Source: Mycolicibacterium chubuense NBB4 (GTDB lineage: Bacteria; Actinomycetota; Actinomycetes; Mycobacteriales; Mycobacteriaceae). From it: 64,000 bases of DNA. Of the stretch, positions 2,482-57,597 are shown piece after piece. A program made the translations under genes and the position numbers. The stretch covers positions 5,084,001 through 5,148,000 of the forward strand of contig NC_018027.1 in the NCBI RefSeq assembly GCF_000266905.1, read 5' to 3'. Each line of letters starts with the position of its first letter. The stretch's first letter is position 1. The notes below the pieces were generated by a model that was not told the DNA's origin, ran no database searches, and saw nothing but the letters and a program-made list of their open reading frames with translations.

Positions 2482-2545
2482 TCGACATGCGAGCTGTTTC
2501 ACGCAGTGATACTTTGATTCCCGATAAGAGACAAAGGTGGTCGTC

Positions 2546-42235: not shown

Positions 42236-43603
42236 TCATCCGTCGGGGTCGCCGCGAAGCAGTTCGTCGGGCTGGTGGGCGCGGTTGACGCCGGGTGATG
42301 AGGTGCCGTCGGTCCAGGCGAGGCGGCCGCGCTCCGTGACAGCCGCGGTCCAGTGGCCGTCGGTGAGCAGTTTGTGGTCCGGGCCGCAGGCGAAGTACAG
42401 CACGTCGGCGTCGGTGCGGCCGCCGCGGGCCCAATCGGTGCTGTGGTGGACCTCGCTGTGGTAGCCGGGTTCCAGGCAGCCGGGCCGGGTGCAACCGCCG
42501 TCGCGTGAGTAGCAGATGATGCGCTGATCGGTGGTGGCGATGCGAGTCTGACGCCCCAGATACAGCGGCCGGTCGCTGTGATCGTCGAACACGGCGAGGT
42601 AGTGGATGGCGTCGGTGGCCATCCGGATCAGGTCCCGCATCGGCAGCGCGGTGTTGCCGCCGGTGCGCGCCGGCGCGGGCATCGACACGTCCGGATTCGT
42701 CGCGGCATGCGCGGCCTGGTTGAGCTCGGCCAGCGTGGTGCGCGCGATCACGGTGACCGGATGGCCGCGGTGAGAGCCCATCTGCCCGGAGGACAGGGCG
42801 GTCTTGAGCCCGAGCTTGACGCCGTCGTGGCAGCGTTGACTCGGTGTGCGGTCGTCGGGAGTGTTCTCGATGCTCCCGTCGGGGAGGTGACGGCCGGGGC
42901 GGACCGCAGCCGAGCAGGCTTCGATGTAGGCGCGGTTTTCCGGGTCGACCCAACCCCAGAGCTTGCTCATCCCGTCGGGGCCTTGCGCACCCAGGTGGAG
43001 TCCACGGCGGCGGGCCCGGTCGGCTTCGTCGTAGTGCCCGTCGGGGTTGAACACCTCGTCGAGGCGCTTACCGACTTCTTTGACGAAATCGGCGTCTTGC
43101 TTGGCTGATTCGCGCACCAAGGTGGCTTCGACGTCCTCGCGGTCGACCGCTGAGGTGGCCGATGGCAGTTTGTCCATGGTGGTGGTGATCGCGCGCAGGT
43201 GGTCTTCGCCCAGCGTTCCGGCGGCGAGTGCGTCGGCCACCACCGGCAGTAGGGGAGGCAGGGCAGGGCCGGAGAGTTGGCGGCGCGCGCACACCTTGGC
43301 GGCGGTCTTGAAGCGGCGGGTCACCTCGCGTACCGGGATACGCAGTCTGGCGGCCAGCCGGGGTTTGACCATCGGGGCCATCGCGGCCTCGTCGGGCGGA
43401 TCGGCGATCTGGCCGAAGGTCCGGTACATCAGTGCGCGGTTACGCCGCTCCTGGGTTTCCAGCCGCTCGGCCATCTCCATCCGGAACCGGGAACCGACCG
43501 TGTCGCAGGGCAGGTCGGTCATCTCGGCGTAGGCGGCGTCGACCTGGTCCAGCAACGTGCTGAACCGCTCTCGCGCCGCCGCGCCGGTGACGAACGAACC
43601 CAT
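42236..43603 (-). CDS. DUF222/HNH endonuclease domain protein (13E12 repeat family)
   Basis: A 455-residue protein with N-terminal DUF222 (about residues 30-330) and a C-terminal HNH nuclease domain (CTRPGCLEPGYHSEVHHSTD, FACGPDHKLL). This family is repeated many times in mycobacterial genomes (13E12/REP) and may have been mobile, but no terminal repeats or partner genes are seen here. The HNH histidines and Cys pair look intact. Confidence 0.88.
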   Translation of the reverse strand: MGSFVTGAAARERFSTLLDQVDAAYAEMTDLPCDTVGSRFRMEMAERLETQERRNRALMYRTFGQIADPPDEAAMAPMVKPRLAARLRIPVREVTRRFKTAAKVCARRQLSGPALPPLLPVVADALAAGTLGEDHLRAITTTMDKLPSATSAVDREDVEATLVRESAKQDADFVKEVGKRLDEVFNPDGHYDEADRARRRGLHLGAQGPDGMSKLWGWVDPENRAYIEACSAAVRPGRHLPDGSIENTPDDRTPSQRCHDGVKLGLKTALSSGQMGSHRGHPVTVIARTTLAELNQAAHAATNPDVSMPAPARTGGNTALPMRDLIRMATDAIHYLAVFDDHSDRPLYLGRQTRIATTDQRIICYSRDGGCTRPGCLEPGYHSEVHHSTDWARGGRTDADVLYFACGPDHKLLTDGHWTAAVTERGRLAWTDGTSSPGVNRAHQPDELLRGDPDG

Positions 43604-43718: not shown

Positions 43719-45443
43719 CTACTGCTTCGCGTACATAGCGGTCAGGCCGGCGGCCACCGCGAATCGCGGGCCGTGCACACCGTCGATGTTGGCGCGCCCC
43801 ACCACCACCGGCACGCCCCGCAGCGCCTCACCGACCGTGCGCATGAGTTCGTCGTCGAGCGCGCCGCCGCCGGCGAGCACCAGCGCGGTCGGCGGCTCGT
43901 CGAACGCGGCCAGGCAGCGCGCGATGTTCGCCGCGACCGTCTCCTGCTTGATCGCCAGCCGCAGACTCCGCCACTCTTCGGCGGCGAGCCGATTGGAGAA
44001 CGGGACCAGGCCGGCGCTGCCCCGTGTGCACAGCCGGCCGATCGCGTCGTGTGACGCCGGCGAGTCGAGGAATACCCGCCGCCCGTCCTCCTCGTGCGCG
44101 ACGTGCGGCCCCTCGACCCGAACGGCCGGTGTCCGTTTGACCGCCTCCGCCAGCGCCCGCGGGATGCCCAGCACCCTGGCGACGGCGACGGTGATCGACT
44201 CCCCCGCACCCGCCGCGACCACCGTGCGTTCGGTGCCGATGAGATCGACTGTGCCGCCGCCGATGTCGCACACCACCGCCCCGGGCGGAATGCCGGGCGT
44301 GGTGCGTGCGCCCCAGGCCGCCGCCTCCGGCTCCGTCGCGAGGGTCGTGGCCCGCCTGCCGGTCAGCTCCTCCAGCGTCGCCGCCGCATCGGCGGCCTCC
44401 TCCGCCGCGAGCAGTGCGACGACGGTGCCCTGCGCGTCGGCGACGCCGCGGCGCAGCCACGCGCCGTTGTCGATCGACGCGAGGTCGGTGAAGAACGCGT
44501 CGTGCACGGCGAGGCCGTCCACGGCGGTCGGCACCGAACGCAGGCGGACCTGCCGGACGCACCCGGGCACCGAGCGACGCAGGACGGCATGGGCCTGGGC
44601 GGGTGAAAACCTCGATGTCTCTCCATTGACGCCGATCTCGACGTAGTCGTCGTCCGGGGCGGGCGGCGGTGGTGGGGAGGTTCGGCGGGTCACCGCGATG
44701 GCCGCGGAATCAGCGAGCTCCCTGCAGAATTCGGCGACGTCCACCAGGCTGTCGGCCGGCAGGCCCAGTGCCGCCGACAGTGCGATCGGGTCGGCCATCG
44801 CGCGGTAAGCCCGCCCCTCCTCGACCACCTCGACCGCCACCAGCGCGCCGGGTTCCAGGTCGGCGACATCGGCCTCGTCGACCACGGGCACGTCGATCGG
44901 TATCCGGTTCCGGATCAGCACCGCGTCGTCCTGGGCGGCCAGCACACCCACTATGTGCCAGCCACGGTCGACCGCCGCGCTGATCTCCCGGGCGGCCACT
45001 TCGAAGTCCGTGGCGTCGTCCACGGAGACGACGACGGGACCGCCGGCCGCCGACGCGGTCAGGTCTGCGAGCCGAACATGGCTGCCGACGCCGTATCCCG
45101 CGCCGGCGGGAGTGCTGGCGTCCGGCCGTCGCAGGCTGCGCACGGGTGAGGACGGCGAGTACCCCGGCGGTATCGGCGCCGTCGCGGTGTCCACCGGGCG
45201 CAGCGAGGACAGCAGCAGCTCATCGGCGCGCACGCCGGCATCGACCTCGATCCTGTGCAGCAGCGCCGCCGCGGCCTGCAGCGACTCGACGCTGCCCTTG
45301 CGTCCGCGGGTGGGCGCCTGCCCGTGCGCGATCGTAAAGACGACTCCGGATCGCACACGGGCCAGCACGATTTCGGTCGTGTGGTTACCGACGTCGATCC
45401 CGGCGACCACTGGATCCGATGACCGGCTCGCCGGTGTCGTCAA
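43719..45443 (-). CDS. Diol dehydratase reactivase, large subunit (DdrA/PduG type)
   Basis: A 574-residue ATPase of the actin/Hsp70 fold that removes damaged cobalamin from B12-dependent diol dehydratase. Phosphate motifs: VVAGIDVGNHTTEIVLARVR at the N-terminus, AVVCDIGGGTVDLIGTERTV near residue 400, and VLAGGGALDDELMRTVGEAL near the C-terminus. The start is taken as TTG 45443, which overlaps the TGA of the small-subunit gene (TTGA), giving coupled translation. The usual small partner DdrB/PduH (~120 residues) is not encoded next to it; 43604-43718 holds no frame for it. Confidence 0.9.
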   Translation of the reverse strand: MTTPASRSSDPVVAGIDVGNHTTEIVLARVRSGVVFTIAHGQAPTRGRKGSVESLQAAAALLHRIEVDAGVRADELLLSSLRPVDTATAPIPPGYSPSSPVRSLRRPDASTPAGAGYGVGSHVRLADLTASAAGGPVVVSVDDATDFEVAAREISAAVDRGWHIVGVLAAQDDAVLIRNRIPIDVPVVDEADVADLEPGALVAVEVVEEGRAYRAMADPIALSAALGLPADSLVDVAEFCRELADSAAIAVTRRTSPPPPPAPDDDYVEIGVNGETSRFSPAQAHAVLRRSVPGCVRQVRLRSVPTAVDGLAVHDAFFTDLASIDNGAWLRRGVADAQGTVVALLAAEEAADAAATLEELTGRRATTLATEPEAAAWGARTTPGIPPGAVVCDIGGGTVDLIGTERTVVAAGAGESITVAVARVLGIPRALAEAVKRTPAVRVEGPHVAHEEDGRRVFLDSPASHDAIGRLCTRGSAGLVPFSNRLAAEEWRSLRLAIKQETVAANIARCLAAFDEPPTALVLAGGGALDDELMRTVGEALRGVPVVVGRANIDGVHGPRFAVAAGLTAMYAKQ

Positions 45444-45775
45444 CGCAACAGGCCCCGGCGCGTATAGGCGGCGGCGGCCTGCTCGACGAGCGCCGCACAC
45501 CGCGAGGCTCCGCGCGCCACGAGCGACGCCCGCAACTCCTCGAGTTCGGCGGCGGTCGAGCGGTACGGGCGCAGGGCTTCGTACAGCGCCATCACGTCCT
45601 CATCGTCGATCGTCGCCAGTTCGGCCGCCCGCAGGAAGTTCTCGGCCAGCTGCGGGTTGCCACCCTCCTCGGCGACGACGGCCTGGTGCGCCAGCGCGGC
45701 GGGATCCATTCGCAGGTCTGCCAGACCCAGCTTGCCGTCGACGGCGTTGCCGATGGTCACGTCCCTGTCGCTCAT
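45440..45775 (-). CDS. B12-dependent diol dehydratase, small (gamma) subunit
   Basis: A 111-residue PduE-like subunit: LRMDPAALAHQAVVAEEGGN, LAENFLRAAELATIDDEDVM and ALYEALRPYRSTAAELEELR. Compared with Klebsiella/Salmonella PduE (~173 residues) about 60 N-terminal residues are missing, including the helix that in Pdu systems targets the enzyme to the microcompartment. It overlaps the dehydratase gene upstream by 4 bases and the reactivase downstream by 4 bases. Confidence 0.9.
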   Translation of the reverse strand: MSDRDVTIGNAVDGKLGLADLRMDPAALAHQAVVAEEGGNPQLAENFLRAAELATIDDEDVMALYEALRPYRSTAAELEELRASLVARGASRCAALVEQAAAAYTRRGLLR

Positions 45776-48024
45776 GGATATTCGACCTTCACGGTCATCG
45801 GCGGTTTGCCCGGTTCGGACGCCTCGCGTTCCAGCGCCACCAGTGCGACCGCCCTGGCGTGATAGCGCGCCGAGATCGACTCGTCGGTGCCACCGGTGAA
45901 GATCGGCACCGGCGCCATGCCCTTGGCGTGACGCGCGGCGTTCTTGCCCAGTTCGCGGTACATCCTCGCCGTGAGCAGCGGTGCGACACTGAACAGCTCG
46001 AGGTTCGCCAGCGGCGCCAGGTCGCGGCGGTGGATCAGGGCGGTTCCCTTGCCCTGCAATCCGATTCCGATCCCGGAGCCCGAGAGGCGGGCAGCGGTGA
46101 GGCCGATGAGCCCGACGTCGATGGTGGAGCGCACGCGCACCGTCCTCGCGACGCAGCCCTCCTCCTCGAGGCCGGCCGAGATCTGGCGCAGCACTTCACC
46201 GATCGTGAGACCGCACAGACTGAGCCACACCGTGTCACCCCACGCCGGTGACAGCCCGATGCACACCTCGCGCGGATCGCTTCCCTGCCGCGCCTCCTCG
46301 ATGTCGGTGACGACGACGTGCCCGCGGTGCTCGACCTGGTCGGCCGTCAGTTCGGCACTGCTGCGCGCCTGCCGGATCGCGTCGATCTCGGCGCGCCGCT
46401 GCTCGGTGAGCGCGTAACCCGTTGCCGGACCGGCATAGTCGTTGGGGTCGGTCAGCTTGGACAGCACGCGGAACTGATCGTCGAAGATCGCCGACGTCTG
46501 CAGCTGGTCGCCGCGCAGACGCTCCCGGGTCAGCGTCGTGATGGCCTCGGCCTCCTCGACGTAGCCGGTGCGGTGCAACGATGCGATCACGTCGAACACC
46601 GTCAGCTGTCTGGCCTCGATCGAGGCCGCCGCCTCGGCCACCATCTTGGGATGCCCGGCCGGCAGGTCACGCGATCCGTTGGCGGACACGACTTCTTCGA
46701 CGCGGGAGTCGTCGTAGTCGGCCAGTCCGAGGTCGCGGTAGACGGCCTGGACCGCGGTCGCGGCACGGCGGCGCACGGCTTCCAGACGTTCGGGTGACAC
46801 CGTGCGCAGGCCTCCGTCGGCACCCCAATCCCGTTGCAGCACCAGGAAGTCGTCCATGTCGTCGGAGTTGAAGTTCGACAGCGCGAACGCGTTGTCGTAG
46901 CGCGGAATCGAACCGAACCCGGAGAAGATGAAGTCGGCTCCGGCGAGCAGCACGGGCAGGGTGTGGGCACTGCGCCGGATGTCGGACTCGGAGATCAGGT
47001 TGTCGTTGCCCGCGCAGGACTCGAGGTCGCGCATCATCACCATCAGGTTCTCGGCGAGCAACTCTTTCATGCCCTCGGGCACCGACGCCACCACGCCCAC
47101 GCCGTCGATGCCGCCGTTCTGCACACCCTGGGAGCCCAGTGCGCGCGCCAGCGACACGCACCGCGACTCCAGATACAGGATCGAGCACTTCTCCGCCGCG
47201 CCCATCAGCACCTCGGCGCCGCCGCCGCTCGTCACGCGCATCTTCAGCCCGCGCGAGGCGTACGCCGACGTCAGGATCGCCTTGCTGAACGGGGTGTCGT
47301 CGCCGTCGACGAAAACCTGCTCGGTGCCGTAGATCGAGATGGTTTCGGCATAACTGGTCAGTCCGCGCAGGCCGAGTCGCAGCTCGAGCGCCTCCTCGAT
47401 GGAGCACTGTGCCATCGCACCGGGCGTGCCGACCTGCGAACCGATCAGCAGCGCGACCGCGTTCGACGGCGCGTCGCCCAGCACCGGCACCGTCGTCTCG
47501 ACTTCGCGGAAGCCGTACGCGACGGCGCTGGCCGCGTCCGCGGCGATGAGCAGCGGGTCGTCGAGCTGATTGGTGACGTGCGCCTGATTGCTCGGGGTCC
47601 GGCGGGCACGCATCTTGGCCATCGCCATCTGCATCTCCACCGGGGACATCAGCGCGACCACACGGGCCAGCTTCGCGGGGGTGGTACCGCCGATCAGCCG
47701 AACCACCTCCGCCCGAGGCACATTGACATCGACGGCCATCCGGGCCAGCGCCGCGTCGTCGAGAGCCATCGCCTCCTCGGCGACCGCGAGATCGATCCCG
47801 TACCGGGCGATGAACTCGTCGATGACGTCGAACTCGGCGGCGCCTTTGCCGTCGAGTTCTGTGACATAGGGCCCACCGTCACCCCACTGAACGACCAGCG
47901 ACGGGGAGGGGTCATGGGAGCTGTGCATCGCGACGAGCCCGAGGCCCGGGTCGGCGACGCTGAACCCGTCGAGGTTGACCGGTTTCGAGTTCAGAACCCG
48001 AAACCGGCCCAACTCGTCTGCCAA
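45772..48024 (-). CDS. B12-dependent diol dehydratase, fused large and medium subunits
   Basis: A 750-residue fusion: residues 1-555 match PduC and ~565-750 match the PduD core (GLTIGEVLRQISAGLEEEGC, LSGSGIGIGLQGKGTALIHR, ARYHARAVALVAL). It makes an aldehyde from a vicinal diol by adenosylcobalamin radical chemistry. Residues matching Klebsiella oxytoca Gln141, His143, Glu170, Glu221, Gln296, Asp335 and Ser362 are all kept at a constant +6 offset (Q147, H149, E176, E227, Q302, D341, S368). The two residues near the substrate C3 end differ: Ser301 becomes Asp307 and Gln336 becomes Asn342. No encapsulation helix is present. The gene lies 9 bases after the APC permease. Confidence 0.93.
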   Translation of the reverse strand: MADELGRFRVLNSKPVNLDGFSVADPGLGLVAMHSSHDPSPSLVVQWGDGGPYVTELDGKGAAEFDVIDEFIARYGIDLAVAEEAMALDDAALARMAVDVNVPRAEVVRLIGGTTPAKLARVVALMSPVEMQMAMAKMRARRTPSNQAHVTNQLDDPLLIAADAASAVAYGFREVETTVPVLGDAPSNAVALLIGSQVGTPGAMAQCSIEEALELRLGLRGLTSYAETISIYGTEQVFVDGDDTPFSKAILTSAYASRGLKMRVTSGGGAEVLMGAAEKCSILYLESRCVSLARALGSQGVQNGGIDGVGVVASVPEGMKELLAENLMVMMRDLESCAGNDNLISESDIRRSAHTLPVLLAGADFIFSGFGSIPRYDNAFALSNFNSDDMDDFLVLQRDWGADGGLRTVSPERLEAVRRRAATAVQAVYRDLGLADYDDSRVEEVVSANGSRDLPAGHPKMVAEAAASIEARQLTVFDVIASLHRTGYVEEAEAITTLTRERLRGDQLQTSAIFDDQFRVLSKLTDPNDYAGPATGYALTEQRRAEIDAIRQARSSAELTADQVEHRGHVVVTDIEEARQGSDPREVCIGLSPAWGDTVWLSLCGLTIGEVLRQISAGLEEEGCVARTVRVRSTIDVGLIGLTAARLSGSGIGIGLQGKGTALIHRRDLAPLANLELFSVAPLLTARMYRELGKNAARHAKGMAPVPIFTGGTDESISARYHARAVALVALEREASEPGKPPMTVKVEYP

Positions 48025-48033
48025 GAAGGCCTC

Positions 48034-49575
48034 CTAGTCGCGGATCTCGTTGTCTTCGTAGACGATCCGGCCGATCAGCTCGTAGCGGTCCTTGTCCCTG
48101 AACTTGAAGTACAGCGCGAGGAGAGCACCGAATGCGAACACCCCGACCACGATCCACGGTGTCAGCTTGAACAGCAACGTGCCCGACGCAGCGCCGGCTG
48201 CGGCGTCCTTGTGCTCCCACAGCAGATACACCACGTAGAGCATCCCGATACCGCCGAGCAGCGGCGCCAGGAACGTCTTGAACCAGTGTGCGCTGGACGG
48301 ATGGTTCTTGTGGAAGTGGAAATACGCGACGACGGAGAAGGCACAGAGCGACTGCACGATCAAGATCGCCATCGTGCCGAGGATCGCGAGCAGCGTGTAC
48401 ATGTGGATGTACGGATCCATGCCGGCGAAGAAGAACGCCAGGATCAGCACCAGAGTGATGCCCGTCTGCACGAACGACGCGATGTGCGGCGAGCCGTGAT
48501 GCTTGTGGGTGGCGCCGAGCGTCTTCTGCAGACCGGCGTGCAGGCCCTCGCGCCCCATCGCGTACAGGTAGCGCGACGCGCAGTTGTGGAATGCCATGCC
48601 GCAGGCGAACGAACCCGTCACCAGCAGGATGTTGAACAGCGTGATCGCCCACTCGCCGTAGGTGCTTCGCACCGGGCCGAAGAAGATCTCCGAGGACGTG
48701 TCGGCGCTCTGCGCCAGGTCGACGGCCTGCTTCGGGCCGGTGCCGGCAATCGCCATCCAGGAGACCAGGACGTAGAAGATGCCGACGCCGAGAACGGCGA
48801 TCATCGTGGCCCGCGGGATGATCTTCTTGGGGTCCTTGGACTCCTCGCCGTACATCGCGGTCGACTCGAACCCGACCCACGACCAGAACGCGAAGAACAG
48901 GCCGAGGCCGGCACTGGCACCCGCGATCGCGGCCGGTTGGAACGCGCCGACCGGATTGAGGATCTGCCCCACGGCGAACCCGTCCGGACCGCCGCCCTTG
49001 ACGGCCACCGCGATCGCGCCGAGCGACAGCATCACGATCTCGGTGATCAGGAACACCCCGAGCACCTTCGCCGTCAGGTTCACGTCGAAGTAGGTCAGGA
49101 TGCAGTTCAGCGTGAGCATCAGCAGCGCGGGGATCAGCCAGTGGACGTGGATGCCCAGCTGGCTGTCGAACAGGTTCTGGAAGAAGAACGCGAAGATGCC
49201 GATCAGCGATCCTTCGAACACGACGTAAGCCATCGTGATGATCAGGCCGCTGGCCATGCCGATCACCCGGCCCAGGCCGTGGGAGATGTACCCGTAGAAG
49301 GCGCCGGTGGAGGTGATGTGCTTGGCCATGGTGGCGTAGCCGATCGCGAACAAGCCCAGCACGATCGTGGCCACGAGGTAGCCGGCCGGTGCGTGCGCGC
49401 CGTTTCCGAAGCCGACGGCGATCGGCACGTTGCCGACCATCGCCGTGATCGGCGCGGCGGTGGCGACCGCCATGAAGATGACGCCGAAGGTGCCTACGGC
49501 GTTGCGCTTGAGTCGTTGGACGGAGTCTGTGGATTTCTGCTGGCCGGGGGCCAGGGTTGTGGGGTCGTCAGTCAT
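48034..49575 (-). CDS. APC-superfamily amino acid/amine permease
   Basis: A 513-residue transporter with about 12-13 membrane helices (first: LKRNAVGTFGVIFMAVATAA; GFGNGAHAPAGYLVATIVLG next). The GAFYGYISHGLGR and FAFWSWVGFESTAMYGEESK segments are APC signatures. RMM microcompartment loci usually include such a permease for the amino-alcohol substrate. Here it is the first gene of the dehydratase operon, divergent from the shell genes. The SD GGGAGG precedes the ATG. The substrate is probably an amine or amino alcohol; an amino acid cannot be excluded. Confidence 0.9.
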   Translation of the reverse strand: MTDDPTTLAPGQQKSTDSVQRLKRNAVGTFGVIFMAVATAAPITAMVGNVPIAVGFGNGAHAPAGYLVATIVLGLFAIGYATMAKHITSTGAFYGYISHGLGRVIGMASGLIITMAYVVFEGSLIGIFAFFFQNLFDSQLGIHVHWLIPALLMLTLNCILTYFDVNLTAKVLGVFLITEIVMLSLGAIAVAVKGGGPDGFAVGQILNPVGAFQPAAIAGASAGLGLFFAFWSWVGFESTAMYGEESKDPKKIIPRATMIAVLGVGIFYVLVSWMAIAGTGPKQAVDLAQSADTSSEIFFGPVRSTYGEWAITLFNILLVTGSFACGMAFHNCASRYLYAMGREGLHAGLQKTLGATHKHHGSPHIASFVQTGITLVLILAFFFAGMDPYIHMYTLLAILGTMAILIVQSLCAFSVVAYFHFHKNHPSSAHWFKTFLAPLLGGIGMLYVVYLLWEHKDAAAGAASGTLLFKLTPWIVVGVFAFGALLALYFKFRDKDRYELIGRIVYEDNEIRD

Positions 49576-49632
49576 CTACTCGGTACCTCCCAAAGCGGGG
49601 CGTAAGTGCAGTCCAGCCCGTACCTGGGCGCC

Positions 49633-49654
49633 ACTGTGGTCTAGACCACAGTGC
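49633..49654 (+). promoter_or_regulatory. 22-bp perfect palindrome, GntR/HutC operator 1
   Basis: Half-site CACTGTGGTCT followed directly by its reverse complement; the core TGGTCTAGACCA is the classical HutC-subfamily GntR operator. It lies 58 bases upstream of the permease start and 126 upstream of the aminotransferase start. Confidence 0.8.
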
Positions 49655-49669
49655 TGGACCTGAGCCATA

Positions 49670-49684
49670 TTGGCACTACCAATT
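49670..49684 (+). promoter_or_regulatory. GntR/HutC operator 2
   Basis: ATTGGCACTACCAAT, an inverted repeat with the same TTGG-N5-CCAA spacing as the site before gntR at 56784-56800. Confidence 0.65.
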
Positions 49685-49713
49685 CAGCTTCGCAAGGGGA
49701 ACATCGAACCTAT

Positions 49714-49742
49714 TGACACAAATGGTTGGACCTTTTACGTTG
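49714..49742 (+). promoter_or_regulatory. Promoter of the microcompartment operon with operator 3 in the spacer
   Basis: TTGACA (49714-49719), a 17-base spacer, then TACGTT (49737-49742). The spacer contains TGGTTGGACC (GGT-TGG-ACC at 49725-49733), a GntR-like half-site pair, placed to block RNA polymerase. An SD GGGAG follows before GTG 49780. Confidence 0.65.
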
Positions 49743-49779
49743 AGGGCACGCGCCCCGCCGACCAACGACAGGGAGTTTC

Positions 49780-51060
49780 GTGTACGACTACGGCACGTTC
49801 TCGTTCGATTCCAAGGCACAGGTGCTGGAGCGGGCGAAGGAATACTGGAACCCGGACAAGACCCAGTTCTGGACCGACTCCGGCGTCGACCTCGTCATCG
49901 ACCGCCGACAGGACTACTTCCTGTGGGACATGAGCGGTCGGCGCCTGATCGACATGCATCTCAACGGCGGCACCTACAACCTCGGACACCGCAATCCCGA
50001 ACTGGTGCAAGCGATCACCGAGGGAATGCAGTACTTCGACGTCGGCAACCACCACTTCCCGTCCGTCGCCCGCACGGCGCTGGCGCAGAAGCTCGTCGAG
50101 TCCGCCCCGGCGTCGCTGACCAAGGTGGCGTTCGGCTCCGGCGGCGGCGAGGCCATCGACATCGCGCTCAAGAGCGCACGCCATGCCATGCAGCGCCGCA
50201 AGATCGTCTCGATCGTCAAGGCCTACCACGGTCACACCGGATTGGCCGTCGCCACCGGCGACGACCGGTTCGCCAAGTTGTTCCTCGCCGACCGGCCCGA
50301 CGAATTCGTCCAGGTCCCGTTCGGCGACGTCGACGCGATGGAGCAGGCGCTGCGCGGGCGCGACGTCGCCGCCGTCATCATGGAGACCATCCCGGCGACG
50401 TACGGATTCCCTCTGCCGCCAATCGGTTACCTGGAAGCGGTCAAGGATCTGTGCGAGCGCTACGACGCGCTCTACATCGCCGACGAGGTGCAGACCGGGC
50501 TCATGCGCACCGGCGAGATGTGGGCCATCACCAAGCACGGCATCGAACCCGACATCATGGTCACCGGCAAGGGACTCTCGGGCGGCATGTACCCGATCAC
50601 CGCGGCACTGCTCAGCGACCGCGCGGCCAAATGGCTCGAACAGGACGGCTTCGGCCACATCTCCACGTTCGGCGGCGCAGAACTGGGCTGCGTCGCGGCC
50701 ATCAAGACACTTGAGATCACCAGCCGACCCGAGGTGCGCTCCTCGGTGCACTACATCGCCGAGATCTTCTCCGAAGGACTGACCCGCATTCAGGCCGACT
50801 ACCCGGACTGGTTCGTCGGCATCCGGCAGAACGGTGTCGTCATCGGCCTCGAGTTCGACCACCCCGAGGGCGCCAAGTTCGTCATGCGCGAGCTCTACCA
50901 GAACGGGGTGTGGGCGATCTTCTCGACGCTGGATCCCCGTGTGCTGCAATTCAAACCGGGCCTGCTGCTGGGCCGCGAACTCTGCGAGGACGTCCTCGAC
51001 CGGGTCGAGGTCGCCGTCGGACGGGCACAGCAGGCCGCTACCGGACGGAGAAAGCCGTGA
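49780..51060 (+). CDS. Class III aminotransferase family enzyme (amino-alcohol-phosphate phospho-lyase)
   Basis: A 426-residue PLP enzyme of fold-type I, subgroup II. Motifs: YFLWDMSGRRLIDMHLNGGT, GSGGGEAIDIALKSARHAM, KAYHGHTGLAVATGDDRF, ADEVQTGLMRTGEM (Asp on the pyridine N), and the Schiff-base Lys in IMVTGKGLSGGMYPI. In RMM loci this enzyme is thought to eliminate phosphate and ammonia from phospho-1-amino-2-propanol to give propionaldehyde. It starts at GTG 49780 and is first in the shell operon. No clear encapsulation helix is seen at either end. Confidence 0.88.
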   Translation: MYDYGTFSFDSKAQVLERAKEYWNPDKTQFWTDSGVDLVIDRRQDYFLWDMSGRRLIDMHLNGGTYNLGHRNPELVQAITEGMQYFDVGNHHFPSVARTALAQKLVESAPASLTKVAFGSGGGEAIDIALKSARHAMQRRKIVSIVKAYHGHTGLAVATGDDRFAKLFLADRPDEFVQVPFGDVDAMEQALRGRDVAAVIMETIPATYGFPLPPIGYLEAVKDLCERYDALYIADEVQTGLMRTGEMWAITKHGIEPDIMVTGKGLSGGMYPITAALLSDRAAKWLEQDGFGHISTFGGAELGCVAAIKTLEITSRPEVRSSVHYIAEIFSEGLTRIQADYPDWFVGIRQNGVVIGLEFDHPEGAKFVMRELYQNGVWAIFSTLDPRVLQFKPGLLLGRELCEDVLDRVEVAVGRAQQAATGRRKP

Positions 51061-52619
51061 CCGGCGAAAATCTCGTGCCCCACGCGGGCCAGCTTCTCGA
51101 GCGGGCGCATTTCGCCGCGGCCGCCTTCTCCGACTACGACCAGGCCTCGGTCGCACGGATCGTCGAGGCCGTCGCCGAGGCCGGCCACCGCAACGCCGAG
51201 CGGTTCGCCGCGGCCGCCGTCGCCGAGACGCAGATGGGCGTGGTCGACCACAAGATCGTCAAGAACCGGGCCTGCTCGCGCGGCATCGTCGACTTCTACC
51301 GCGACCAGGACTACGTGAGCCCACGGATCGACTCGGCCCGCAAGATCGTCGAGATCCCCCGGCCCGCAGGGGTCGTGCTGGCTCTGACACCCACGACCAA
51401 CCCGGTGTCGACGGTGTACTTCAAGGTGATCCTCGCGATGATGACCCGCAACGCCGTCGTGGTCGCTCCTCATCCTCGGGCCAAGCAGTGCTCGGCCGAT
51501 GCGGCCCGGGTGCTCGCCGAGGCGGCCGCCACCGCCGGCGCGCCGGACGGCATCATCCAGGTGATCGACGAGCCGTCCATCCCCCTGGTCGAGGCGCTGA
51601 TGGCCGACGAGCGCACCGACGTCATCGTCGCCACCGGCGGCACCGGTGTGGTGCGTGCTGCGTACTCCTCGGGCAACCCGGCGCTCGGTGTGGGCCCCGG
51701 CAACGTCCCGGTGCTCGTCGACGCCACCGCAGACGTCGAGGCCGCCGCCCGGCGCATCGTCGACAGCAAGGCCTTCGACAACTCCGTGCTGTGCACCAAC
51801 GAGTCGGTGCTGATCGTCGAAGAGGCCGTCGCCGCCAGGCTGCGCAGCGCACTCACCCGCCACGGTGCCCACATCCTCGACGAGGATGCCGCACTTCGCT
51901 TGCGCGAGTTCATGTTCCCCGGCGGCGCACTGAACACCGAGGTGGTGGGACGCGACGCGTCGTGGATCGCCGAACGCATCGGCCTGCGGGTGACACCCAA
52001 GACCCGGGTGTTGATCGCGCCGTTCACCGACGTGATCGGTGAAGAGGTGCTGACCCACGAGAAGCTGTCCCCGGTCCTGGGCATGACCACCGTCGCCGAC
52101 GCCAGACGCGGCATCCGGGCCGCCCGCGCCGTCGTGCGCATCGCCGGCGCAGGACATTCGGCGGCGATCCACAGCGAGGATCCCGCGACCATCACCGACT
52201 TCGCGGCCCAGGTGCCGGTGCTGCGTGTGGCGGTCAACGTCGGCAACAGCACCGGCAGCTCCGGGCTGGACACCAACCTCGCGCCGTCAATGACGATCGG
52301 CACGGGCTTCGTCGGCCGCAGTTCGATCGGTGAGAACCTGCAGCCCGACAACCTGATCAACTGGACGCGTATCGCCTACAACAGCGACGCGGGCGTGCCG
52401 ATGGCCAACTTCGCGGGGCTGTCCCCGTGGCGCTCACCCGCCGGCCCGGTGCCCGCTTATCCGCGGGCGTCCAACGACACGGCCGCTGCACCCGCGCCGG
52501 CCGTCCGCACCGTCAGTCGGGCACCTGCACGCCGCAACGGCGACCCTGGCATCGAGGCGCTGCGCGCCGAGTTGCGTGCGCTGGTGGCCGAAGAACTCGC
52601 ACAGTTGATCAAGAGGTGA
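51057..52619 (+). CDS. CoA-acylating propionaldehyde dehydrogenase with C-terminal encapsulation peptide
   Basis: A 520-residue aldehyde dehydrogenase of the PduP/EutE group, converting aldehyde, NAD+ and CoA to acyl-CoA. The catalytic Cys is in [37 protein letters not shown] and [13 protein letters not shown] are family motifs. After the catalytic domain a Pro/Ala linker (~residues 466-497) leads to an amphipathic helix, [20 protein letters not shown], ending the protein, the standard encapsulation peptide that binds shell proteins. GTG 51057 overlaps the aminotransferase stop by 4 bases. Confidence 0.93.
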
Positions 52620-52622
52620 CCT

Positions 52623-53228
52623 GTGGCTGAACTGCGTTCCTTCATCTTCATCGATCGTCTGCAGCCGCAGACGATGTCGTACCTGGGCACCTGGATCAAG
52701 GGCGCGCTGCCGCGCGCCGGCGTCGCCGCCCAGATCATCGAAGTCGCACCGGGACTCGACATCGAGGGTGTCACCGACGTGGCGCTCAAGCACGCCGAGG
52801 TGCAGGCCGGGGTGCTGGTCGTCGAGCGTCAGTTCGGCTACCTGGAGTTCCACGGCGAGACCGCCGCGGTCGAGGCCGCCGCCGACGCGGCGCTCGACGA
52901 ACTGGGCCGCGAGTCCGATTCGGCCACCGCACCGCAGATCTTGGCGTCGCGCATCATCTCGAGCATCGACGCCCAGCACGCATTCCTGATCAACCGCAAC
53001 AAGATCGGATCGATGGTGCTGGCCGGTGAGACGCTGTACGTGCTCGAGGTGTCCCCCGCCTCGTACGCGATCCTGGCCACCAACGAGGCCGAGAAGGCCG
53101 CGGACATCAAGGTCGTCGACTTCCGGATGATCGGCGCAACCGGGCGGGTGTACCTGTCGGGCACCGAGTCGGACATCCGTCAGGCCGCGGCCGCCGCCGA
53201 GGAGTCGCTGGCACGGAGCGTGCCGTGA
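52623..53228 (+). CDS. BMC-T shell protein with two BMC domains (paralogue A)
   Basis: A 201-residue trimer-forming shell protein. Two BMC folds: residues ~1-100 (FIFIDRLQPQTMSYLGTWIK, VLVVERQFGYLEFHG) and ~105-200 (ISSIDAQHAFLINRNKIGSM, RMIGATGRVYLSGTESD). It is clearly paralogous to the protein at 54302-54973 over the whole length. It starts at GTG 52623, 3 bases after the aldehyde dehydrogenase, and overlaps the next gene by 4 bases. Confidence 0.93.
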   Translation: MAELRSFIFIDRLQPQTMSYLGTWIKGALPRAGVAAQIIEVAPGLDIEGVTDVALKHAEVQAGVLVVERQFGYLEFHGETAAVEAAADAALDELGRESDSATAPQILASRIISSIDAQHAFLINRNKIGSMVLAGETLYVLEVSPASYAILATNEAEKAADIKVVDFRMIGATGRVYLSGTESDIRQAAAAAEESLARSVP

Positions 53229-53719
53229 GCATCGACCGCGAGGAGCTGCGCCGACTGGTCCGCGACGTGATCCGCGAGACCGTCGGCGATCTCAAAGCCG
53301 CACCGGCACCGGCACCGGCACCACCGAAGGCGTCGCCGCCGGCGCCGGCCCGGGCTCCCGAGGGGCCGGTGGCCACCGGTCCGCTCGCTGCTGACGAGAG
53401 GTCCCGCACCGACACCGTACGCATCGCCAACGACCGTGACCTCGATGTCTTCGTGCGGAACCTGTTGCGCCTCTTCGAGAATCCGAAGACCCGCGCCGAC
53501 CTGCGGCACGGCCGGCTGACGTTCCGGCTCGCCGGCGCCGAACGCGGCGGCTCCGGCTCCAGCCGCCGTGTCGAGCGCGGCGCGGTCACCGAACGCCAGA
53601 TCGCGGACATCGCCGAGGCCGGCTCGTCGCTGATCCTCGGCCCGCGCGCCGTACTCACCCCGCTGGCCCGTGAGCGCGCCCGGGCGCTGGGCGTGACCAT
53701 TCACAAGGAGCGAACATGA
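53225..53719 (+). CDS. Microcompartment-associated linker protein
   Basis: A 164-residue protein. Residues 1-25 (MSIDREELRRLVRDVIRETV) form an amphipathic helix of encapsulation-peptide type, followed by a Pro/Ala linker (APAPAPAPPKASPPAPARAP). The middle has RDLDVFVRNLLRLFENPKTR. The C-terminal ~45 residues (AVTERQIADIAEAGSSLILG, PRAVLTPLARERARALGVTI) resemble the N-terminal segment of EutQ. It has no enzyme motif. It overlaps both neighbours by 4 bases, so it is made with the shell and may link shell and cargo. I do not know a confirmed function. Confidence 0.8.
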   Translation: MSIDREELRRLVRDVIRETVGDLKAAPAPAPAPPKASPPAPARAPEGPVATGPLAADERSRTDTVRIANDRDLDVFVRNLLRLFENPKTRADLRHGRLTFRLAGAERGGSGSSRRVERGAVTERQIADIAEAGSSLILGPRAVLTPLARERARALGVTIHKERT

Positions 53720-53955
53720 TCCGAGGCACAGTCACCGGCCAGGTCTGGTCTACCCGCCGCATCGACGGCATCCCCGCCGGCGCCTTTCTCGAGGTGCAGA
53801 CCGAGAGCTCGCAGCTCATCGCGTTCGACGTGCTGGGCACCGGGGTGGGCGAGCAGGTGCTCGTCGCCCAGGGATCGGTGGCGGCGAGCTGGTTCACCGG
53901 CACTCCCCCGCCGGTCGACGCCCTGATCATCGGATCCATCGACCCCGCCGGATAG
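53716..53955 (+). CDS. BMC-P pentameric vertex protein (EutN/CcmL family)
   Basis: A 79-residue protein with the EutN/CcmL pattern: MIRGTVTGQVWSTRRIDGIP, a central ELQ-like QLIAFDVLGTGVGEQVLVAQGS and the terminal DALIIGSID. Pentamers close the vertices of the shell. The ATG overlaps the linker gene by 4 bases. Confidence 0.95.
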   Translation: MIRGTVTGQVWSTRRIDGIPAGAFLEVQTESSQLIAFDVLGTGVGEQVLVAQGSVAASWFTGTPPPVDALIIGSIDPAG

Positions 53956-53997
53956 CACTCCGGACGCCCCGCCCGACAACCGTCAGATATCACAACA

Positions 53998-54006
53998 AAG
54001 GAGAAA
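53998..54006 (+). promoter_or_regulatory. Strong ribosome binding site of BMC-H
   Basis: AAAGGAGAA ends 3 bases before ATG 54010 (core AAGGAG spaced ~7). It follows a 54-base gap, the only real spacer within the shell genes, which are otherwise overlapped. It fits the need for many more BMC-H copies than the other shell proteins. Confidence 0.6.
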
Positions 54007-54009
54007 ACC

Positions 54010-54291
<282 letters not shown>

Positions 54292-54301
54292 TCTCTCGAC
54301 G

Positions 54302-54973
54302 ATGGCAGTGCTGAACACCCCGAAGGGAAACGAGGCGCCGACGCGGACCGACATCCGCGTCTACCTCCTTGTCGAGGACCTCCAGCAGCAGTTCGCCGCC
54401 TACCTCGGCACCCCGACCCGGGCTCGTGGATATCCGCCGTACGCCGGCGAGCACGCGCTCATCGTCGAGGTGTCACCGGCTCTGGCGATCGAGCGGGTCA
54501 TCGACCTCGCGCTGCGGGAGGTGCCGGGTATCCAGCCGGGAATCCTGTACGTGGAGCGGCAGTTCGGCGTGCTCGAGATCCACTCCGGTGATCTGGCCGA
54601 CGTGCGGCGGGCCGGTGAGGCGATCCTGAACGGCACCGGCAACGTCGCGGCCGACCAGTTGCGGCCGAGGGTGCTCTACCACGACGTCATCGAAGACATC
54701 ACCGATCAGCATGCGGTGATCCTGAACCGCAACCGGCAGGCGTCGATGGTGCTGCCCGGGCAGTCGCTGCTCGTCTACGAGATGACACCGGCACTGTTCG
54801 CCGCGGTGGCCGCCAACGAGGCGGAGCGCGCCGCGCCCGGCCTGACGCTGGTGGACGTGCAGATGATCGGGGCCGCGGGCCGGCTCTACATCAGCGGCAG
54901 TACCGAAGACGTGGTGACGGCGCGCGACCGCATCACCGCGGTGCTGGCGGCGATCGAGGGACGCGACCATTGA
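54302..54973 (+). CDS. BMC-T shell protein with two BMC domains (paralogue B)
   Basis: A 223-residue protein, paralogue of the 52623 gene with a ~20-residue longer N-terminus (MAVLNTPKGNEAPTRTDIRV). Matching blocks are ILYVERQFGVLEIHSGDLAD, DQHAVILNRNRQASMVLPGQ and VQMIGAAGRLYISGSTED. ATG 54302 is 11 bases after BMC-H; the TGA overlaps the kinase start. The two BMC-T proteins may form different pores or stacked trimers. Confidence 0.92.
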   Translation: MAVLNTPKGNEAPTRTDIRVYLLVEDLQQQFAAYLGTPTRARGYPPYAGEHALIVEVSPALAIERVIDLALREVPGIQPGILYVERQFGVLEIHSGDLADVRRAGEAILNGTGNVAADQLRPRVLYHDVIEDITDQHAVILNRNRQASMVLPGQSLLVYEMTPALFAAVAANEAERAAPGLTLVDVQMIGAAGRLYISGSTEDVVTARDRITAVLAAIEGRDH

Positions 54974-55965
54974 CGGCCGAGGACATGGGTGACGACAGGG
55001 CGGTGGCCGAGCAGGCCCTCGAGGCTTTCGACCTCCCTCAGGGGTCCGCTCTTCGGCTGCTCAACCTGTCCGAGAACGCGACCTACGCCGTCGAGGAGCC
55101 CGGAACCGGCCACCGGTCGATCCTTCGGGTGCACCGCAAGGACTACCACCGGCGCGATCAGATCGAGTCGGAATTGCACTGGCTCGACGCCCTGCGGCGC
55201 GACAGCGACCTGACCGTGCCCACCGTCATCCCTGCGCGTGACGGCGGGCGGGTCGTCACCGTCACCCACGACGGCACCGAACGCCATGTCGTGCACTTCG
55301 AGATGGTGCCCGGTGCGGAGCCGGACGAGAATTCGCTCACCACAACGGACTTCCATACGCTGGGGTGCATCACCGCGGCACTGCACGATCACGCGCGCAG
55401 CTGGAGACGACCCGCCGAGTTCAGCCGCTTCGCCTGGGACTGGGAGCACAGCCTCGGTGATTCACCCCGGTGGGGCCGCTGGCGCGATGCCGTCGGCGTG
55501 GGCCCGGCAGAGGAGGAGGTGCTCACCCGGGCGCAGGAACTCCTGCAGCAGCGACTCAGCGAATACGGCAGCGGGCCGGACACTTTCGGCCTGGTGCATG
55601 CCGATCTGCGGCTGGCCAACCTGCTCGTCGACGGCGACACCATCACGGTCATCGACTTCGATGACTGCGGGTTCGGCTGGTACTTCTACGATTTCGGCAC
55701 GGCGGTGTCTTTCTTCGAGGACCATCCGTCGGTACCGGAATGGCAGGAGGCCTGGGTCAGCGGCTACCGGACCCGGCGCGAACTCACCCCGGCCGACGAG
55801 GACATGCTCGCGTCGTTCGTCCTGCTGCGCCGCCTGCTGCTGCTGGCCTGGATGGGCACCCACAGTCACTCCCGGGAATCGCAGGCCATCTCGATCACCT
55901 ACGCCGCCGGCAGCTGCGAGCTCGCGGAGCGGTACCTGTCCTCCGACGGCCACCGGTTGACCTGA
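54970..55965 (+). CDS. APH-fold small-molecule kinase (1-amino-2-propanol kinase candidate)
   Basis: A 331-residue choline/aminoglycoside-kinase-like enzyme. The catalytic loop is LVHADLRLANLLVDGD (HxD....N) and the metal motif VIDFDDCGFGWYFYDFG; the N-lobe has YAVEEPGTGHRSILRVHRKD. In the M. smegmatis RMM locus the equivalent enzyme phosphorylates (S)-1-amino-2-propanol. The start is TTG 54970, overlapping the BMC-T stop (TTGA); ATG 54985 is an alternative. Confidence 0.88.
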   Translation: MTAEDMGDDRAVAEQALEAFDLPQGSALRLLNLSENATYAVEEPGTGHRSILRVHRKDYHRRDQIESELHWLDALRRDSDLTVPTVIPARDGGRVVTVTHDGTERHVVHFEMVPGAEPDENSLTTTDFHTLGCITAALHDHARSWRRPAEFSRFAWDWEHSLGDSPRWGRWRDAVGVGPAEEEVLTRAQELLQQRLSEYGSGPDTFGLVHADLRLANLLVDGDTITVIDFDDCGFGWYFYDFGTAVSFFEDHPSVPEWQEAWVSGYRTRRELTPADEDMLASFVLLRRLLLLAWMGTHSHSRESQAISITYAAGSCELAERYLSSDGHRLT

Positions 55966-55987
55966 CCCCACGAAAGGGTTCTGATTC

Positions 55988-56767
55988 ATGTTCACCTCGT
56001 TGCAGGGCCGCTCGGCGATCGTCACGGGCGGCAGCAAGGGCATCGGCCGCGGCATCGCCGAGACGTTCGCCCGGGCCGGTGTCAACGTCGTCCTCACGGG
56101 GCGACACCAGGCCGACATCGACGCCACGGTCTCCGACCTCGACGGTCTCGGCGGCTCGGTGACCGGCGTCGCCGCCGACGTGACCAGTCCCGAGGACTGC
56201 CGTCGCGTGGTGGGCACCGCAGTCGAGCGCAACGGCGGCCTCGACATCGTCTGCGCCAACGCCGGGATCTTCCCGTCCGGACGCCTGGCCGACCTGACGC
56301 CCGAGGACATCGAGCAGGTCATCGGCGTGAACTTCAAGGGCACGGTGTACATCGTCCAGGCCGCGCTGGAGCCGCTGACCGCCAGCGGACACGGCCGGGT
56401 GATCATCACGTCGTCGATCACCGGACCCATCACCGGATTCCCGGGCTGGTCGCACTACGGCGCGAGCAAGGCCGCACAGCTCGGATTCCTGCGCACCGCG
56501 GCGATCGAGTTGGCGCCGAAGAAGATCACCGTCAACGCCGTCCTCCCGGGCAACATCGTCACCGAGGGTCTGATCGAAATGGGCCAGGCCTACATGGACC
56601 AAATGGCCGCGGCCGTGCCCGCCGGCCGGCTCGGCGCCGTGGCCGACATCGGCAACGCCGCGCTGTTCTTCGCCACCGATGAGGCGGCCTACGTCACCGG
56701 TCAGTCGCTGGTCGTCGACGGTGGCCAGATTCTTCCGGAGTCACCGGAGGCGCTTGCCGACCTCTGA
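55988..56767 (+). CDS. Short-chain dehydrogenase (aminoacetone/1-amino-2-propanol dehydrogenase candidate)
   Basis: A 259-residue SDR. Cofactor motif [23 protein letters not shown] in [10 protein letters not shown]; catalytic Ser in [10 protein letters not shown] and Tyr/Lys in [10 protein letters not shown]; the end [20 protein letters not shown] is classical. In RMM loci it interconverts aminoacetone and 1-amino-2-propanol. AAAGGG precedes the ATG. Its use of NADH would recycle the NADH made by the aldehyde dehydrogenase. Confidence 0.87.
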
Positions 56768-56783
56768 GGCCGGCATACCCTAC

Positions 56784-56800
56784 ATTTGGTCTTACCAAAT
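56784..56800 (+). promoter_or_regulatory. Operator before gntR (autoregulation)
   Basis: ATTTGGTCTTACCAAAT, a perfect 7-bp inverted repeat around CTT, 20 bases before the gntR start and sharing TTGG-N5-CCAA with the site at 49670-49684. Confidence 0.75.
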
Positions 56801-56820
56801 CAGTCGGCGCAGGAGGTGCA

Positions 56821-57597
56821 GTGGCCACCCAGACGGAAGAGCTGCGGCGGCTGATCGTGGCCGACATCAACGCCGGCGAGCCGGGCACCAAGCTGGGCAG
56901 TGAGCGGGAACTGGCCGAGCGCTACCGGACCAGCCGGTCGAGTCTGCGCCAGGTGCTGGCAGCCCTCGAGGAGTCCGGCCTGGTCGACCGCGTGATCGGC
57001 CGTTCCGGAGGTATCTTCATCAGCCACGGCCAGGTCCAGCGCAGCCTCTCCGACGTCGTCGGGGTGCCGGCGTTTCTCGCCAGCCAGGGTTACGTGGCGG
57101 GTACGCGGGTGCTCTCGACCAAGATCGCCGCACCCGACGCGACCACGCAGCAGGCGCTCGGGATCGCCGCCGAGGATTTCGTCATCGAGATCCAGCGGGT
57201 CCGGCTCGCCGACGGATCGCCGATCTCGTTGGAGCTGGCGCGTTTTCCCGCCGAGACCTTCCCCGGACTGCTCGAGCAGCAGCTCGGCGGGTCGCTCTAC
57301 GAGATCCTGGAGAGCCACTACGGGCTGGTCACCTCGCGCGCGGACGAACGCATCGAGGCCGTCAACGCGACGCCGGAGGAAGCCACGCTGCTCGGCATCA
57401 AGCCGGGCTCGGCACTGCTGCTCATCACCCGGATCACCTACGACCAGAACGGCACTCCCTGCGAGTATTCGCGCGACCTCTTCCGCGGCGACCGCACCCG
57501 GCTCGCGGTCACCGCGCGGGGCCGCGGCGTGGGGGCTCAGCCCTCGGTCGGTGACGCCTCGGTCGCGCTGCAGAGCCAGCAACGGCGGGTCGGCTGA
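56821..57597 (+). CDS. GntR/HutC-family regulator of the microcompartment locus
   Basis: A 258-residue regulator. The N-terminal winged helix (LGSERELAERYRTSRSSLRQ, VLAALEESGLVDRVIGRSGG) is followed by a UTRA ligand domain (residues ~90-235: FVIEIQRVRLADGSPISLEL, LLLITRITYDQNGTPCEYSR). HutC-type operators occur in the divergent promoter and just before this gene. GTG 56821 has AGGAGG upstream. The likely inducer is an amine or pathway intermediate. Confidence 0.9.
   Translation: MATQTEELRRLIVADINAGEPGTKLGSERELAERYRTSRSSLRQVLAALEESGLVDRVIGRSGGIFISHGQVQRSLSDVVGVPAFLASQGYVAGTRVLSTKIAAPDATTQQALGIAAEDFVIEIQRVRLADGSPISLELARFPAETFPGLLEQQLGGSLYEILESHYGLVTSRADERIEAVNATPEEATLLGIKPGSALLLITRITYDQNGTPCEYSRDLFRGDRTRLAVTARGRGVGAQPSVGDASVALQSQQRRVG

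What the first reader, a model, noticed from the sequence alone, without database searches (positions are those of the whole stretch)
43719..57597. Microcompartment of the RMM type physically joined to a B12 diol dehydratase operon
The plus-strand operon has the full set for aminoacetone/1-amino-2-propanol use: phospho-lyase, CoA-acylating aldehyde dehydrogenase, four shell proteins, linker, kinase, SDR and GntR. Divergent from it, on the minus strand, lie permease, fused diol dehydratase, small subunit and reactivase. Known RMM loci reach propionaldehyde by kinase plus phospho-lyase and do not need a diol dehydratase. A second aldehyde-producing enzyme feeding the same shell and aldehyde dehydrogenase would be a dual-input microcompartment. 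I cannot tell how widespread the arrangement is.
Basis: partly seen in the sequence, partly recalled or inferred. Interest (0 to 1): 0.85.

Follow-up and report, generated by a model that had tools for sequence, protein, structure and literature searches.

The report
Aminoalcohol microcompartment with adjoining diol dehydratase
A soil mycobacterium carries a known type of protein organelle for breaking down amino alcohols next to a vitamin-B12 enzyme; comparing relatives suggests that the enzyme belongs to the amino-alcohol pathway rather than to the organelle, and that it may act on an amine-bearing diol instead of ordinary propanediol.

Summary
In detail: an RMM shell operon lies divergent from permease, fused PduC-PduD dehydratase, PduE and reactivase. 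The arrangement is already named: Axen et al. 2014 define RMM2 as RMM1 plus an opposite-strand diol dehydratase and mention a bifunctional compartment as the alternative. So neither locus type nor dual-input idea is new. New is evidence on that open question. (1) Of 198 genus genomes, 14 link dehydratase to the shell operon; another 14 link it to a lyase operon without shell or aldehyde dehydrogenase; all 15 shell-less lyase genomes carry the dehydratase. (2) No encapsulation peptide is visible on it. (3) It runs with the permease, behind a conserved palindrome shared with the shell operon. (4) Its seven catalytic residues are kept, but pocket Ser301 is Asp, invariant in 240 of 240 related fused clusters; 13 of 13 unfused loci checked have Ser. 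(5) Such enzymes recur beside APC permeases or kinase/class-III genes, also on shell-less rhizobial plasmids. Best reading: a co-regulated, probably cytosolic partner of the amino-alcohol pathway, perhaps an aminodiol dehydratase. Against it: 20 of 49 genus genomes hold the dehydratase unlinked, and co-occurrence without linkage is not shown. Substrate untested.

The parts
43719..45500 (-). diol dehydratase reactivase alpha (PduG/DdrA-like; true start uncertain); no second PF02288 protein (beta partner, PduH) found in the genome
   Evidence: PF08841 and PF18427; 2d0o E 5e-50; one PF02288 match in the genome, the fused one
45440..45775 (-). dehydratase small subunit (PduE-like, 111 aa, no N-terminal extension)
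   Evidence: PF02287 E 4.9e-29, matched from profile position 25
45772..48024 (-). fused PduC-PduD dehydratase; catalytic residues kept; Ser301->Asp307, Gln336->Asn342
   Evidence: PF02286+PF02288; alignment to solved enzymes; residue table
48034..49575 (-). APC-family permease (conserved with RMM also where the dehydratase is absent)
   Evidence: PF13520/PF00324
49576..49779 (.). divergent intergenic region shared by both arms
49632..49653 (.). 22-bp perfect palindrome, candidate GntR operator (core TGTGGY-N4-RCCACA)
   Evidence: core exact in 52 of 73 distinct intergenic regions, 0.1% of mononucleotide shuffles
49667..49683 (.). second conserved motif ATATTGGCACTACCAAT
49780..51060 (+). class-III PLP enzyme, inferred amino-alcohol-phosphate phospho-lyase
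   Evidence: PF00202 E 8e-72; neighbours of plasmid relatives
51057..52619 (+). CoA-acylating-type aldehyde dehydrogenase with conserved C-terminal encapsulation-type helix
52623..53228 (+). BMC-T shell protein (MSM0275 orthologue)
   Evidence: PF00936; 5l39
53225..53719 (+). linker protein with N-terminal encapsulation-type helix
   Evidence: no Pfam/NCBIfam hit; conserved N-terminus
53716..53955 (+). BMC-P vertex protein
   Evidence: PF03319
54010..54291 (+). BMC-H shell protein
   Evidence: PF00936 E 3.5e-27
54302..54973 (+). second BMC-T shell protein (CcmP-like)
   Evidence: NF053796 186 bits, below its cut-off of 340, and no Pfam match; 45% identical to BMC-T1
54970..55965 (+). APH-family kinase
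   Evidence: PF01636
55988..56767 (+). SDR, close relative of 6ci8/6ci9 (recalled as M. smegmatis 1-amino-2-propanol dehydrogenase)
   Evidence: E 4.6e-138 and 2.4e-137
56821..57597 (+). GntR-UTRA regulator
   Evidence: PF07702, PF00392

Best explanation
This is an RMM2 locus in which the fused B12 dehydratase is a co-regulated member of the amino-alcohol catabolic module (permease, kinase, class-III lyase, SDR, GntR), not a signature enzyme that needs the shell. Mechanism: amine import by the APC permease; kinase plus lyase turn an amino alcohol into an aldehyde, taken by the encapsulated CoA-acylating ALDH; the dehydratase, transcribed with the permease from the shared divergent region, turns a second, co-imported vicinal diol into an aldehyde in the cytosol, from where it enters the same pathway or other aldehyde dehydrogenases. 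Shown by sequence: gene set, co-orientation, conserved palindrome, absence of a visible targeting helix, catalytic residues, Asp at the 301 position, shell-less relatives that keep the dehydratase. Inferred: operator function, cytosolic location, lyase chemistry, and that the substrate is an amine-bearing diol (for example 3-amino-1,2-propanediol).
For: Lyase search made without regard to the dehydratase: 53 of 198 genus genomes have the lyase (E 1e-120 or better); 15 lack the shell and 15 of 15 carry the type-A dehydratase, 14 of them linked. 12 of those 14 have no close relative of the RMM ALDH anywhere; the other two have AdhE-sized proteins at 37-38%. Operon tree of 70 loci: shell state needs 4 changes (gain or loss), all shell-less loci inside the dehydratase-linked clade. 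Dehydratase probably placed beside the RMM permease twice: out-of-genus RMM2 dehydratases are separated from mycobacterial ones by unlinked lineages, supports 95-99. Palindrome core exact in 52 of 73 intergenic regions; upstream of standalone dehydratases 0 of 35 within one mismatch. ALDH and linker carry encapsulation-type helices, dehydratase and PduE do not. Asp301 in 240 of 240 clusters of two D301 groups while 13 of 13 unfused loci have Ser (unfused state checked). Shell-less rhizobial plasmid operons with fused dehydratase + APH + class-III + SDR + GntR; Nakamurella: APC permease directly before the dehydratase with Gln-synt_C, ADH, ALDH genes.
Against: 15 of 38 shell-bearing genus genomes hold the type-A dehydratase elsewhere, without the palindrome and, in the representatives scanned, beside unrelated genes; 5 genomes have it with no lyase. 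Independent-pair test lyase versus dehydratase: 5.8 same, 0.0 opposite of 9 pairs, median p 0.031, range 0.0156-0.25, but with linked genomes removed only 1.3 same, 0.2 opposite of 5 pairs, so co-occurrence may be mere linkage. Standalone copies keep Asp301 (52 of 52 rows), so the pocket does not depend on this pathway. Gaiella-like fused enzymes have Ser301/Ala336 (120 of 120): fusion and Asp301 are separable. Rhizobial lyases are only 25% identical and their kinases were not detected by BLAST with the window kinase: analogous, not orthologous. The palindrome pattern is not enriched in the own genome (3 places against 7 for the reversed control). Lack of a recognisable peptide does not exclude encapsulation by partners. 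Both trees carry long-branch warnings.
Confidence: 0.5

Rival explanations
1. Dual-input compartment: the dehydratase is encapsulated and makes propionaldehyde from 1,2-propanediol for the same ALDH (first reader; Axen's alternative).
For: Axen 2014 names it as an option; physical linkage in 14 of 198 genus genomes and in 3 out-of-genus loci; catalytic residues intact.
Against: No targeting helix visible; retained in 14 linked loci without shell or ALDH beside it; Ser301 replaced by Asp.
Confidence: 0.2
2. Neighbours only: the dehydratase is an independent cassette that happens to sit beside the RMM permease (Axen's preferred reading: RMM2 does not use it).
For: Opposite strand; standalone copies in 20 of 49 type-A genomes (15 with shell elsewhere, 5 without lyase); pair test without linked genomes has no signal.
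Against: Probably linked twice independently at the same place; co-oriented with the permease, median gap 37 bases in 62 loci, some of them the same strain from two collections, behind a shared palindrome; kept in loci that lack the shell.
Confidence: 0.2
3. Serial pathway: amino alcohol to lactaldehyde, SDR to 1,2-propanediol, dehydratase to propionaldehyde (an extension of a scenario in PMC6620236).
For: That paper proposes lactaldehyde and, in its second scenario, 1,2-propanediol (passages); would explain retention together with the SDR in shell-less loci.
Against: Leaves the kinase unexplained before the dehydratase; the SDR's measured substrate is amino-2-propanol (passages); Asp301 unexplained.
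Confidence: 0.08

Closest known systems
RMM2 locus type (Axen et al. 2014, PMC4207490)
   Same: RMM1 core from permease to GntR plus diol dehydratase genes on the opposite strand
   Different: nothing essential; added here: shared strand and short spacing of permease and dehydratase, a common palindrome, and shell-less relatives
RMM1 / Aut compartment of M. smegmatis and Rhodococcus
   Same: shell, ALDH, lyase, kinase, SDR, GntR, permease; relatives with solved structures
   Different: no dehydratase next to it
Natural alpha-beta fused glycerol dehydratases (Liu 2010, as cited in PMC7674605, passages)
   Same: large and medium subunit in one chain; M. smegmatis and Mesorhizobium named there
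   Different: the passages I read do not mention Asp at 301 or loss of the reactivase beta subunit
PDU compartment
   Same: B12 diol dehydratase beside a shell and an acylating ALDH
   Different: separate PduC/PduD, PduH present, PduD targeting peptide (recalled), Ser301/Gln336

Membership tests
RMM2 | RMM1 gene set from permease to GntR, syntenic | tested here: met
RMM2 | diol dehydratase genes on the opposite strand | tested here: met
   definition read
RMM2 | RMM1 hydrolases absent, no PTAC or classical AlcDH | tested here: met
   no such domain in the proteins of 43719-57597 scanned; the linker has no family match
B12 diol/glycerol dehydratase | seven catalytic/metal-binding residues | tested here: met
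   five named and D335, the role of E221 recalled
B12 diol/glycerol dehydratase | Ser301 (3-OH contact) and Gln336 | tested here: not met
   Asp307, Asn342; role of S301 and Q336 read
B12 diol/glycerol dehydratase | activity on 1,2-propanediol or glycerol | not testable with these tools
   needs enzyme assay
two-subunit dehydratase reactivase | alpha plus beta (PduH) subunit | tested here: not met
   one PF02288 match in 10 of 10 fused-type genomes, two in 4 of 4 unfused-type
PDU compartment | encapsulation peptide on dehydratase | tested here: not met
   (judged by eye on 22 sequences)
dual-input microcompartment | dehydratase in the lumen, shared ALDH | not testable with these tools
   indirect evidence against:

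The most novel reading that the evidence does not exclude
The fused, Asp301-bearing dehydratases are a separate B12 enzyme subfamily that dehydrates cationic aminodiols (for instance 3-amino-1,2-propanediol to 3-aminopropanal), partnered with amine permeases; the carboxylate binds the ammonium group where Ser301 contacts glycerol's 3-OH. The fusion removes the subunit exchange used by two-subunit reactivases, so a single-subunit reactivase serves them. RMM2 would then be one of several amine pathways that recruited this enzyme.
Probability: 0.3. Interest if true: 0.78.

Novelty: new member of a known kind. Interest (0 to 1): 0.52.

Why it matters
Axen et al. left open in 2014 whether RMM2 compartments use the dehydratase. 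Natural shell-less loci, the shared palindrome and the changed pocket make that question testable with a few simple assays. If the pocket reading holds, many proteins now named propanediol/glycerol dehydratase are misnamed, and B12 radical dehydration extends to amines. The fusion-without-PduH pattern also bears on how reactivases act on fused enzymes, which a 2020 review calls unknown (passage).

Tried and rejected
Independent co-occurrence as proof of function: rejected, the signal goes when linked genomes are left out. Types B and C as controls: no pair signal (1.1 v 0.7 and 1.5 v 0.5 of 9 pairs), though raw odds ratios were 11 and 14. A replacement gene in shell-less loci: none seen among conserved neighbour clusters, and no close ALDH relative in 12 of 14 genomes. 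A functional hint from neighbours of standalone dehydratases: the representatives scanned were WS/DGAT, penicillin-binding protein, PorA, haem peroxidase, a weak peptidase C39 match, or without a family. Sigma-70 promoter and terminator scan of the intergenic region: nothing. Growth on propylene glycol of Paracoccus yeei TT13, listed in a survey as an RMM2 bearer (passage): the genome paper (whole text) says pdu is absent and proposes the lactate route, so not usable. First rpoB tree discarded: 29 rows split off on a very long branch, evidently on the wrong strand; redone. Rooting with L151 replaced by out-of-genus loci; long branches L254/L255 meet there, and the dehydratase tree carries three such warnings. 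Structure prediction and fold search were not run.

Type sets were copied by hand. Rows include some strains twice, from two collections; one search removed identical intergenic regions only.
Full report
WHAT IS THERE. The window lies in a 6.34-Mb genome of the Mycobacterium/Mycolicibacterium group: its dehydratase is 92-95% identical to those of M. iranicum, M. vaccae, M. austroafricanum and M. chubuense. BMC-T1 matches the RMM shell protein MSM0275. The SDR matches 6ci8/6ci9, labelled there as an oxoacyl-ACP reductase; that these are the M. smegmatis 1-amino-2-propanol dehydrogenase is recalled. The dehydratase is the only one of its family in the genome.

PRIOR ART. I read the passages of Axen et al. 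2014 on RMM (PMC4207490). [quoted passage not shown] Sutter et al. 2021 keep the RMM2 type (PMC8217296, passages). So the finding's observation and its dual-input idea are both in print. The listings of searches for later work showed no experiment on the question; the library lacks most subscription papers.

NATURAL VARIANTS. In 198 genus genomes, 60 have a dehydratase match: type A, the window's fused kind, in 49; fused type B in 17; unfused type C in 23 (some genomes have several). The RMM BMC-T is in 38, the lyase in 53. Regions around these genes (79 fetched) were mapped with the window's proteins. Four architectures appear: (I) full RMM2; (II) the same divergent arms with lyase, kinase, SDR and GntR but no ALDH, no shell and no linker, lyase and kinase 17-147 bases apart; (III) RMM, mostly with permease, but no dehydratase beside it; (IV) dehydratase, small subunit and reactivase alone. 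In the 198 genomes 14 are I (G316 cut after BMC-T1) and 14 are II: 12 are seen through to GntR, L106 is cut in the kinase and L117 after the lyase, where the class rests on the absence of BMC-T1 and ALDH from the genomes. In L110 the permease is missing too. All 15 genomes with lyase but no shell carry type A; the fifteenth (G307) is too fragmented to judge linkage. The lyase search did not depend on the dehydratase, so the pattern is not a product of searching by dehydratase.

HISTORY. The operon tree (70 loci) places the dehydratase-linked mycobacterial loci (40 rows) in one clade, support 99, among RMM1-type loci; shell presence needs 4 changes, dehydratase presence 2. A class-II locus (L213) is nested beside a class-I locus (L084), support 99. 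Three loci outside the genus show the arrangement with dehydratases 59-62% identical: L255 in full, L254 and L258 as far as their contigs go, with 1.5 kb between permease and dehydratase in L254. In the dehydratase tree they are separated from the mycobacterial ones by unlinked lineages, supports 95-99. Two recruitments beside the same permease fit best, but both trees carry long-branch warnings, and counts of changes cannot tell gain from loss. In the family sample, dehydratase was found in the window's genus only (7 of 301 genomes); a BMC-T1 match in 16 of 301, of which 11 at 66% identity or more, in 4 genera.

CO-OCCURRENCE. Type A and lyase occur together in 44 of 49 and 44 of 53 genomes. 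On an rpoB tree of 98 genomes, of 9 independent pairs differing in lyase, type A goes the same way in 5.8 on average and the other way in 0.0, median p 0.031, while types B and C do not follow. With linked genomes left out nothing remains (5 pairs, 1.3 v 0.2). So the two arms move as a block; function-driven co-occurrence beyond linkage is not shown.

REGULATION. The 204-base divergent region holds a 22-base perfect palindrome (49632-49653). Its core is exact in 20 of 26 class-I, 9 of 20 class-II and 23 of 27 class-III intergenic regions, against 0.1% of mononucleotide shuffles, and in none of 35 upstream regions of standalone dehydratases within one mismatch. In the own genome the pattern occurs at 3 places, its reversed control at 7, so it is not enriched genome-wide. 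Permease and dehydratase run in one direction with a median gap of 37 bases in 62 loci. This weakens the argument that opposite strands mean separate use; that GntR binds here is inferred.

LOCATION. The ALDH ends in a conserved amphipathic-looking helix and the linker begins with one in most of the mycobacterial and out-of-genus RMM loci compared; the dehydratase and PduE do not, and the C-D junction is alike in classes I, II and IV (22 sequences, by eye). Absence of a peptide is not proof of absence from the lumen.

THE ENZYME. The seven catalytic or metal-binding residues are all kept in the window. Ser301, which contacts the 3-OH of glycerol (PMC9850924, passages), is Asp307; Gln336 is Asn342. 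Asp301 stands in all 117 type-A rows (one of them has Gly at 362), 3 of 3 type-B, 4 of 4 out-of-genus RMM2-like, and 3 of 4 others, L247 having Glu; in 120 of 120 window-like and 120 of 120 rhizobial-like protein clusters, the best-scoring lists of two searches. Unfused loci have Ser301 and Gln336 in 3 of 3 type-C and 10 of 10 others from Actinomycetota, Archaea, Fusobacteriota and Citrobacter. A Gaiella-like fused group has Ser301 and Ala336 (120 of 120), so Asp301 defines a subset of fused enzymes. Searches for 'S301D' with dehydratase and B12 (no paper) and 'aminopropanediol' (0 occurrences in the 15 papers listed of 1,103) found nothing in this library.

NEIGHBOURS. Asp301 enzymes sit beside an APC permease in RMM2, in two of three type-B loci (with PucR in the one scanned), in Nakamurella (permease immediately upstream, with glutamine-synthetase-like, ADH and ALDH genes), in MAG L244 (Pfam) and its relative L253 (BLAST only), and within 5 kb of two permeases in M. 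sediminis. L247 has no permease on its short contig but an APH plus class-III fusion protein and a Zn-ADH. On Agrobacterium and Shinella plasmids the fused dehydratase shares a gene row with an ABC importer, SDR, APH kinase, class-III enzyme and GntR, with no shell. These class-III enzymes are only about 25% identical to the RMM one. I did not count permeases beside canonical dehydratases systematically; of five plasmid loci, the four annotated list no APC permease.

REACTIVASE. Fused-type genomes (10 of 10) have a single PF02288 match, unfused-type genomes (4 of 4) two, the second taken as the reactivase beta subunit by position. A reference title seen reports subunit swapping between reactivase and dehydratase. 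Fusion would hinder that, so loss of beta is consistent; this is inference. That natural fusions exist is known.

VERDICT. A real RMM2 locus, a known type. The evidence leans against an encapsulated second input and towards a co-regulated member of the amino-alcohol module, with an unexpected pocket change that suggests an amine-bearing diol as substrate.

Noticed in passing
L366 (G829) 3-3672: RMM-like SDR and GntR lie immediately upstream of a fused dehydratase on the same strand: a third arrangement, seen only with 1.5-kb flanks.
   Followed up: partly
L244, L253: Two fused dehydratases flank one APC-type permease in actinomycete MAGs.
   Followed up: partly
L264 (G230:C3; same length and coordinates as Rhodococcus jostii RHA1 plasmid NC_008270): RMM-like BMC-T, linker, BMC-P and BMC-H occur twice in tandem.
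   Followed up: no
L260 (G193): The second BMC-T is matched in two overlapping pieces, as from a frameshift or sequencing error.
   Followed up: no
window 42236-43603: A DUF222 gene lies next to the reactivase; it was not matched in the 79 regions of relatives, so it is not part of the system.
   Followed up: partly
G000:C1:104999-106300 and G000:C2:7273-8574: The two other contigs of the own genome each carry an acylating-type ALDH relative (33-35% identity to the RMM ALDH).
   Followed up: no
L250 (Mycolicibacterium sediminis): A second fused dehydratase, 79% identical to the window's, behind a large FMN/FAD oxidoreductase and between APC permeases.
   Followed up: partly
L389, L390: Rhizobial plasmid relatives of the RMM lyase (56-57%) sit with an alkaline-phosphatase-family gene and, in L389, near PhnF, pointing to a phosphorylated amine as substrate.
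   Followed up: partly
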